Assembly: GCF_000317065.1 (NCBI RefSeq) | Contig: NC_019701.1 | Location: forward strand, 3,048,001-3,112,000 | DNA length: 64,000 nt | Direction of reading: 5' to 3' | Source of the DNA: Pseudanabaena sp. PCC 7367 | Lineage (GTDB): Bacteria > Cyanobacteriota > Cyanobacteriia > Pseudanabaenales > Pseudanabaenaceae | In this document: positions 42,389-59,489 of the stretch, in pieces | Numbering within the stretch: the first letter of the stretch is position 1 | Layout: every line of letters starts with the position of its first letter | Notes under the pieces: model-generated | What the model was told of the DNA's origin: nothing | Database searches by the model: none | Seen by the model: the letters and a program-made list of their open reading frames with translations, nothing else | Position numbers and translations under genes: made by a program

Positions 42389-43347
42389 GTGGTTGTCCCC
42401 TTGCGGGGTAATGGGTTTGAAAGCTCGTTTCAGCCCTCGTACATTGCAACAGATGTTCCCCAGTTTCAGTCCCCTTGCGGGGTAATGGGTTTGAAAGACC
42501 CGACGAACACCCTATGGCCGTCAAAGCGGTTAACAAGGTTTCAGTCCCCTTGCGGGGTAATGGGTTTGAAAGCTTGCTGAACAGGGCTGGTGTGTTGTTG
42601 GTGACCAGAACGACGGTGGTTTCAGTCCCCTTGCGGGGTAATGGGTTTGAAAGTTGAAGCAATATCATCATTAACAGACATTGATGCATATAGTTTCAGT
42701 CCCCTTGCGGGGTAATGGGTTTGAAAGCCCCACCCCTCAGGTGGAGTTGGTTAGCTTCAGGCCAGTTTCAGTCCCCTTGCGGGGTAATGGGTTTGAAAGT
42801 CCACATGGCAGCTAATTTTGCTATTGAGCTTGCAACTCCAGCAGGCAAGTTTCAGTCCCCTTGCGGGGTAATGGGTTTGAAAGTCTTTTGCTTTAAAATT
42901 TTACTCACCGATCTTGTTTTTCGGTTTCAGTCCCCTTGCGGGGTAAAGGGTTTGAAAGTTCAAAGCGAATGGAACAAGCTGCGCAACACGTGGCTCGACC
43001 ATGTGTTTCAGTCCCCTTGCGGGGTAAAGGGTTTGAAAGAGACCGAATTGGCCCATCTGCTTCTAGCGCAGTTGATCAGACAAGTTTCAGTCCCCTTGCG
43101 GGGTAAAGGGTTTGAAAGCCAGTCTTGGTCTGTCCAAATCTGAGATACAGGCCGAAAAGTTTCAGTCCCCTTGCGGGGTAAAGGGTTTGAAAGAGCTATC
43201 AAGATGCTTTCTGGATCGAACTGACTGGTCGTGTTTCAGTCCCCTTGCGGGGTAAAGGGTTTGAAAGTCTGACGATGACCAATATCATGTAAAACATTCC
43301 AACAGAGACGGTGTTTCAGTCCCCTTGCGGGGTAAAGGGTTTGAAAG
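42389..43347 (-). CRISPR. CRISPR array 1: 13 repeats of 35 bp, 12 spacers
   Basis: Repeats begin at 42389, 42463, 42538, 42619, 42693, 42765, 42849, 42924, 43005, 43084, 43159, 43233 and 43313. On the plus strand each reads GTTTCAGTCCCC...TTTGAAAG; on the minus strand it ends in GGGGACTGAAAC, the usual cyanobacterial 3' end with an ACTGAAAC handle. Transcription is therefore from right to left. Spacers are 37-49 bp, a wide range typical of type III or I-D systems. The repeat at 42389 is degenerate, as expected for the leader-distal end. Repeats 1-7 contain GGTAATGGG; repeats 8-13, nearest the leader, contain GGTAAAGGG. No cas gene is in the window. Confidence 0.99.
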
Positions 43348-58131: not shown

Positions 58132-59207
58132 TTTTTTGTCCCCTTGCGGGGTAGTGGGTTTGAAAGCTACCCAACCTTATTCATCCTGGCTTACCAAAGG
58201 TTCTTGTTTCAGTCCCCTTGCGGGGTAGTGGGTTTGAAAGTCCTCGAAGGTTTTACCCAAAACTCAGGAGCAAAAAGAGTTTCAGTCCCCTTGCGGGGTA
58301 GTGGGTTTGAAAGAATGCTATTTCTATTCACGCATTTAATTCAGTACAAAGAATTGTTTCAGTCCCCTTGCGGGGTAGTGGGTTTGAAAGGAACTAACGC
58401 GTGCAATGCATGTATCGGTTCTTGGGAGTTTCAGTCCCCTTGCGGGGTAGTGGGTTTGAAAGAAACTGGAAAAACTGTTGTTGTCCCAGAGGATTATTTG
58501 CAGTTTCAGTCCCCTTGCGGGGTAGTGGGTTTGAAAGATGCACCAATTAATTTTGCTGTGTTGGATGAAACCGCCAGTTTCAGTCCCCTTGCGGGGTAGT
58601 GGGTTTGAAAGTTTCCGCTATTTGTATAGCTGCGGTCTTTTTGGGGGCATGTTCAGTTTCAGTCCCCTTGCGGGGTAGTGGGTTTGAAAGCAGTATTTAT
58701 AGAGGATCCAAAACAAGGAAGGAAAGAGGGTTTCAGTCCCCTTGCGGGGTAGTGGGTTTGAAAGATACTCTGATTTATATGATCTCTATTTACATTACAA
58801 GTGTTTCAGTCCCCTTGCGGGGTAGTGGGTTTGAAAGGCTTTGAAGTAGTTGGCGAATCCCTCAAAGGGATCGTTTCAGTCCCCTTGCGGGGTAGTGGGT
58901 TTGAAAGCTCAGTTTATACTTGGCCTTAAAGCTAAGGTAGCTGCATGTTTCAGTCCCCTTTCGGGGTAGTTGGGATGTCAAGGTCTACCCTGATGGTTGC
59001 TGGAGTACATGAGTGCTTCAGTTTCAGTCCCCTTTCGGGGTAGTTGGGATGTCAAGTTTAGAAAGTGTTGCGAACACTTCTAACTCATCTACTTGGTTTC
59101 AGTCCCCTTTCGGGGTAGTTGGGATGTCAAGGCTGCATGAGTGCGTTTAGCTACTTATATTATTAACCCCGGTTTCAGTCCCCTTTCGGGGTAGTTGGGA
59201 TGTCAAG
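58132..59207 (-). CRISPR. CRISPR array 2: 15 repeats of two types, 14 spacers
   Basis: Repeats 1-11 (35 bp) begin at 58132 (degenerate), 58206, 58279, 58356, 58428, 58503, 58577, 58656, 58730, 58803 and 58873. They match array 1 except for GGTAGTGGG in the middle. Repeats 12-15 (36 bp) begin at 58947, 59021, 59096 and 59172 and differ in many places: TTTCGGGG for TTGCGGGG, then TAGTTGGGATGTCAAG for TAGTGGGTTTGAAAG. Both types keep GTTTCAGTCCCC, i.e. the ACTGAAAC handle on the minus strand. The leader is on the right, so the four variant repeats are the newest. Spacers are 35-44 bp. No cas genes here. Confidence 0.99.
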
Positions 59208-59405
59208 AGCCCTGATCTAGAGCCCCTACCCAGAGTGGCATTGAGAGGTACAAATCTACGGAGGGTATAATTATTGAGAATTGACCTTCATTATTGCCAA
59301 TCAAAACAATGCGTGTAGACCTGAAACGCTTGCATCGCAAGGCATCTACACAGGTGAACGAAACTATGCGGTTTTCAAGGATCTTATGACCTGCGTCGAT
59401 CACTC
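59208..59405 (-). promoter_or_regulatory. Leader of CRISPR array 2
   Basis: Homologous to the array 1 leader along its length: CTACCCAGAG at the array end, ATTATTGCCA, a CTTGC-ATC-GCAAG hairpin (59329-59341), and the block starting AACTATGCGGTTTTC at 59362. An inverted repeat (59344-59356 with 59388-59400) surrounds that block as in array 1, with a matching base change in both arms. Confidence 0.85.
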
Positions 59406-59489
59406 TTCTAAAATACCCACTAATCCCCCATTTTGTCGATAGCAAAACCTTTAATTTATGTGAAGCAGCGATCGCTACCATAAGAGACC

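What the first reader, a model, noticed from the sequence alone, without database searches (positions are those of the whole stretch)
58873..59207. Abrupt repeat-type switch at the leader end of CRISPR array 2
Eleven 35-bp repeats are followed by four 36-bp repeats that differ at many positions but keep the first 12 bases. The leader is on the right, so these four are the newest. Gradual point mutation cannot easily give such a step. Explanations are array fusion, replacement of the leader-proximal repeat by recombination with another array, or a change of Cas6/adaptation machinery. The kept crRNA handle suggests the same effector can still use both types.
Basis: seen in the sequence. Interest (0 to 1): 0.68.

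Follow-up and report, generated by a model that had tools for sequence, protein, structure and literature searches.

The report
Mosaic CRISPR array with swapped leader
A bacterial CRISPR memory array carries two different repeat sequences with a sharp switch between them, most likely because a piece of a second array, with its own control region, was joined on by recombination; the event is unusually clean but of an ordinary kind.

Summary
The switch is real: ten identical 35-bp A repeats plus a degenerate trailer copy, then four identical 36-bp B repeats next to the leader, with no intermediates. The types differ by about six edits, nearly all in the crRNA-5' half; handle and hairpin are kept. 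Passive drift of one repeat while ten stayed unchanged is rejected (p = 4e-7). In 113 related arrays, 17 clean internal steps occur; the other 16 are 1-3 edits. Best reading: one crossover in the shared part of the repeat joined a leader-B array end to an A array, removing the A leader. No donor was found, so this stays an inference. Nothing supports a change of Cas6: one Cas6 beside one type III-D effector. The only Cas1 is type I-C; the RT-Cas1 found beside this leader family in relatives is missing, so the 'newest' end may be long frozen.

The parts
58132..58166 (-). Degenerate trailer-end copy of the A repeat (oldest repeat; handle lost)
58206..58907 (-). Ten identical 35-bp A repeats with nine spacers (older part of array 2)
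   Evidence: exact matches
58908..58946 (-). Junction spacer between the last A repeat and the first B repeat
   Evidence: no match elsewhere in the genome
58947..58960 (-). First 14 bases of the boundary B repeat, identical in A and B: likely place of the crossover
   Evidence: comparison of A and B; the crossover itself is inferred
58947..58982 (-). B repeat 4 (oldest B copy, 36 bp)
59021..59056 (-). B repeat 3
59096..59131 (-). B repeat 2
59172..59207 (-). B repeat 1 (next to the leader)
59208..59450 (-). Leader of class B, about 75% identical to the A leaders of this genome
59357..59383 (-). Conserved leader core GATCCTTGAAAACCGCATAGTTTCGTT
59388..59401 (+). Leader iteron, inverted copy (GACCTGCGTCGATC on +)
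   Evidence: imperfect in this leader
59343..59356 (-). Leader iteron, direct copy beside the core (CACCTGTGTAGATG)
   Evidence: imperfect
59251..59265 (-). Leader iteron, direct copy nearer the array (CCCTCCGTAGATTTG)
   Evidence: imperfect

Best explanation
Array 2 is a mosaic made by one recombination event between two arrays of the same type III family. An array with A repeats lost its leader-side end, and the leader-side end of a B array (leader B plus one to four B repeats) took its place. The crossover lay in the part of the repeat that A and B share (14 bases of handle and hairpin arm). The source was either a B array lying in tandem beside it, fused by a deletion, or DNA from an unsampled relative. 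Any spacers added afterwards copied the B repeat, because integration duplicates the leader-adjacent repeat (established CRISPR knowledge). Shown: the step, the absence of intermediates, the different leader class, A-type leaders at the other A-type arrays, no second B array. Inferred: the crossover, its place, its source and how many B units arrived with it.
For: Clean 10+4 step with no intermediates. Leader changed with the repeat: array-2 leader 0.75-0.77 identical to the A leaders, which are 0.92 identical to each other; the array at C2:3888385-3888830, with the same A repeats, has an A-like leader remnant (56/70 and 53/70 to A leaders, 43/70 to array 2). Within genomes leader and repeat distances go together (rho -0.62, 86 pairs). 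Six differences in one repeat against none in 350 bases of older copies, p = 4e-7. Among 17 clean steps in 113 arrays only this one exceeds 3 edits. Parallels: in G029 (L068) an array of four X repeats ends in a repeat identical to those of a neighbouring array, 6 edits from X; the 3888385 array holds one C-like repeat among A-like ones. Tandem same-direction arrays, the needed precursor, occur in the same family (G023, G029, G003).
Against: No donor or second B array was found. Leader class does not follow repeat strictly: three within-genome pairs share a repeat (edit 0-1) with leaders only 63-75% alike, and four pairs have leaders over 90% alike with repeats 5-6 edits apart, so repeats can change greatly under a nearly constant leader. 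The closest relative of the B leader found is the A leader of the same genome, so divergence in place is not excluded. The pairs are not independent observations.
Confidence: 0.6

Rival explanations
1. Stepwise change in place: leader and leader-adjacent repeat changed in several small steps, each copied into new repeats, and the repeats with intermediate sequence were later lost by internal deletion, leaving an abrupt step.
For: Small steps of 1-3 edits are the usual pattern (16 of 17 clean steps), including array 1 of this window (one base); a genome of the same family shows graded series (L069, L070). Internal loss of units is common in CRISPR arrays (review PMC8047081). The B leader's nearest relative found is the A leader.
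Against: The ten A repeats stayed identical although the leader diverged by about 25%; a deletion would have to remove every intermediate and nothing else.
Confidence: 0.25
2. One-step rewriting of the first repeat alone, for instance by faulty integration or repair at the leader-repeat junction or by conversion from a single repeat, under a leader that was always of class B.
For: Differences are concentrated in the leader-side half of the repeat; large repeat changes under nearly identical leaders exist in G003.
Against: A repeats elsewhere in the genome go with an A-type leader; the loop base, away from the junction, changed as well.
Confidence: 0.1
3. Assembly or sequencing artefact joining two arrays.
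For: Repeats invite misjoins; reads could not be examined.
Against: Two-contig genome at 100% completeness and 0.08% contamination; B repeats and the B leader occur only here, so there is no other array end in the assembly to be misjoined.
Confidence: 0.04

Closest known systems
Rearrangement of CRISPR arrays by recombination at repeats (review PMC8047081)
   Same: Repeats serve as homology for deletion and rearrangement; the trailer end is conserved with a degenerate last repeat
   Different: The passages read concern loss or duplication of units within one array; here two repeat classes and a leader class are joined
RT-Cas1-associated type III arrays of cyanobacteria (PMC5513706)
   Same: Same leader family as arrays beside RT-Cas1 in relatives; adaptation module thought able to act in trans with type III effectors
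   Different: This genome has no RT-Cas1; its only Cas1 and Cas2 are type I-C
Ordinary repeat drift copied from the leader-adjacent repeat (as in array 1 of this window)
   Same: Newer repeats share a changed sequence, older ones keep the former
   Different: Usually 1-3 edits, here six plus a different leader

Membership tests
Mosaic array made by inter-array recombination | Two repeat classes in one array, each with several identical copies | tested here: met
   10 A and 4 B exact copies
Mosaic array made by inter-array recombination | Leader belongs to the class of the leader-side repeats, not of the older ones | tested here: inconclusive
   Leader differs from all A leaders, but no other B array exists to show that it is the B repeat's own
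Mosaic array made by inter-array recombination | Breakpoint in sequence shared by both arrays | tested here: met
   14 shared bases at the boundary repeat
Mosaic array made by inter-array recombination | Donor array identified (supporting, not essential: the donor may be lost or unsampled) | tested here: not met
   None in own genome, 145 genomes, genome contigs or viral contigs
Mosaic array made by inter-array recombination | No graded intermediates | tested here: met
   other strains not available
Array family of RT-Cas1-associated type III systems | Conserved leader core about 150-170 bp from the first repeat | tested here: met
Array family of RT-Cas1-associated type III systems | RT-Cas1 present | tested here: not met
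   One Cas1 (I-C, 351-aa frame) and one RT on the other contig without Cas1
Guides of the type III-D effector of this genome | Hairpin and ACTGAAAC handle suited to the single Cas6 | tested here: inconclusive
   Same hairpin and handle in A, B and C; processing not measured

The most novel reading that the evidence does not exclude
Leaders of this array family carry a leader-specific iteron in about three copies that varies in step within each leader. If it sets which arrays an adaptation complex uses, array 2 records a natural swap of adaptation specificity: repeat and leader code exchanged as a unit while guide processing stayed the same.
Probability: 0.15. Interest if true: 0.55.

Novelty: new member of a known kind. 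Interest (0 to 1): 0.33.

Why it matters
It suggests that CRISPR arrays of one family can exchange their leader ends, so repeat sequence and position need not date spacers along a single history. It also gives a clean natural case in which handle and hairpin are fixed while the leader-side half of the repeat and the leader change, which fits the view that these parts answer to different machines (Cas6/effector versus integrase).

Tried and rejected
Looked for a second B array in the genome, in relatives, in the species-genome collection and in viral contigs: none (a single 20-base hit in a Bacteroidales contig is about what chance would give). Phage and plasmid collections: no phage hit, only short general repeat or leader similarity in plasmids of Nostoc, Anabaena and Kovacikia. 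Three B spacers in viral contigs (exact 22-mers) and the B-region spacers in the own genome: no targets. An antisense role of GTTTCAG in the leader against the crRNA handle was considered and dropped: it does not change in leaders whose repeats have another handle. I first took the effector for III-B by eye; the PADLOC scan shows III-D.

Full report
Observation. Array 2 (58132-59207) holds ten identical 35-bp repeats A, one degenerate A copy at its left end, and four identical 36-bp repeats B at its right end. Read as crRNA (minus strand), A is CTTTCAAACCCACTACCCCGCAAGGGGACTGAAAC and B is CTTGACATCCCAACTACCCCGAAAGGGGACTGAAAC. They share the hairpin stem and the ACTGAAAC handle; the loop stays of GNRA type; the rest of the change is in the leader-side half. 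Both fold into the same 4-bp hairpin.

Setting in the genome. The window lies in a two-contig genome (G000). It has six arrays with this handle: array 1 of the window (42389-43347), array 2, C2:3411179-3412685 and C2:841798-842500 (class C repeats), C2:3694549-3695104 and C2:3888385-3888830. B repeats occur only in array 2. No cas genes were seen among the ORFs beside the window arrays (read by eye). The only Cas1 and Cas2 found belong to a type I-C locus with its own, different arrays. One Cas6 over the family cut-off lies at C2:540568 beside Cas10, Csx10, Csm3-like, Csx19, Csm2 and Csx21 genes, that is, type III-D.

Leader. The leaders of array 1 and of the 3694549 array are 0.92 identical; that of array 2 is 0.75-0.77 identical to them. 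The 3888385 array, which has the same A repeats as array 2, keeps a decayed leader: over the 70 bases upstream of the core it matches the A leaders at 53 and 56 positions and the array-2 leader at 43. So the A repeats of array 2 probably once had an A leader, and repeat and leader changed together. The caveat is real: in other genomes leader and repeat classes follow each other only loosely (rho -0.62 over 86 pairs, with exceptions both ways).

How unusual is the step? The leader core was found in 65 of 390 genomes of the class, with no match to the reversed control pattern in the rows shown. From the stretches fetched and the own genome, 113 arrays with 1758 repeats were read. Seventeen internal steps have at least two identical copies on both sides; sixteen measure 1-3 edits, array 2 six. 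Passive drift is rejected: six changes in one repeat against none in 350 bases of the older copies (p = 4e-7); this test does not exclude selection or homogenisation of the older repeats.

Parallels. In G029 (same family, L068) an array of four X repeats ends in one older repeat identical to the repeats of a neighbouring array and six edits from X. In the 3888385 array of this genome one C-like repeat stands between A repeats and a degenerate A-like repeat. In G003 the oldest repeat of one array (L070) equals the older type inside another (L069). Tandem arrays in one direction, the precursor for a fusion by deletion, are present in G023, G029 and G003. Exchange between arrays therefore may be a recurrent process in this family, although shared ancestry of arrays could also leave such old repeats.

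Mechanism. The best reading is a single crossover in the 14 shared bases that joined the leader end of a B array to the body of an A array and removed the A leader. Whether the B array lay in tandem or came from outside, and whether one or four B units came with it, cannot be told. The rival of small steps followed by loss of intermediates is the main alternative.

Is the end recent? In relatives this leader family lies near long Cas1 frames (G023, G022, G060, G209, G329); for G023 the frame was confirmed as a reverse transcriptase-Cas1 fusion, for the others this is inferred from frame length. The literature describes RT-Cas1 modules as mobile and able to act in trans on type III systems (PMC5513706). 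This genome has none. The leader-side spacers are the youngest in order, but there is no sign that the array still grows; its leader iterons are also poorly matched (8 and 8 against 13 and 15 in array 1).

Limits. No other genome of the genus was among the relatives drawn, so strain comparison was impossible. Collections may leave out near relatives of the window's genome (note). The survey finds only arrays in stretches fetched around a recognisable leader core, with repeats close to one hairpin pattern. That the organism is a Pseudanabaena-like cyanobacterium is my reading from memory of the sequence style and was not tested.

Noticed in passing
59251-59401, and leaders of about 100 related arrays (L066-L165): Leaders carry a leader-specific iteron: an inverted copy upstream of the core, a direct copy after it and another nearer the array. 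Copies within a leader match far better than between genomes (mean 10.1 against 6.7 and 11.9 against 7.8; highest of 2000 permutation means 7.4 and 8.5).
   Followed up: partly
42389-43347: Array 1 has a one-base step: seven older repeats with TAATGGG, six newer with TAAAGGG.
   Followed up: yes
G000:C2:3888385-3888830 (L018): Decaying array with A repeats, one C-like repeat and a broken A-type leader.
   Followed up: partly
G000 whole genome: Six arrays of a type III family and a III-D effector, but no RT-Cas1 or other Cas1 than type I-C.
   Followed up: partly
L025 596-8423 (G000:C2, about 2206.6-2214.4 kb): Type I-C array of about 80 repeats and a second of 14, separated by transposase-like ORFs; the smaller one seems to contain a duplicated spacer.
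   Followed up: no
L161 (G231): Handle switch inside an array: two newest repeats end in GATCGAAAC, older ones in GACTGAAAC.
   Followed up: no
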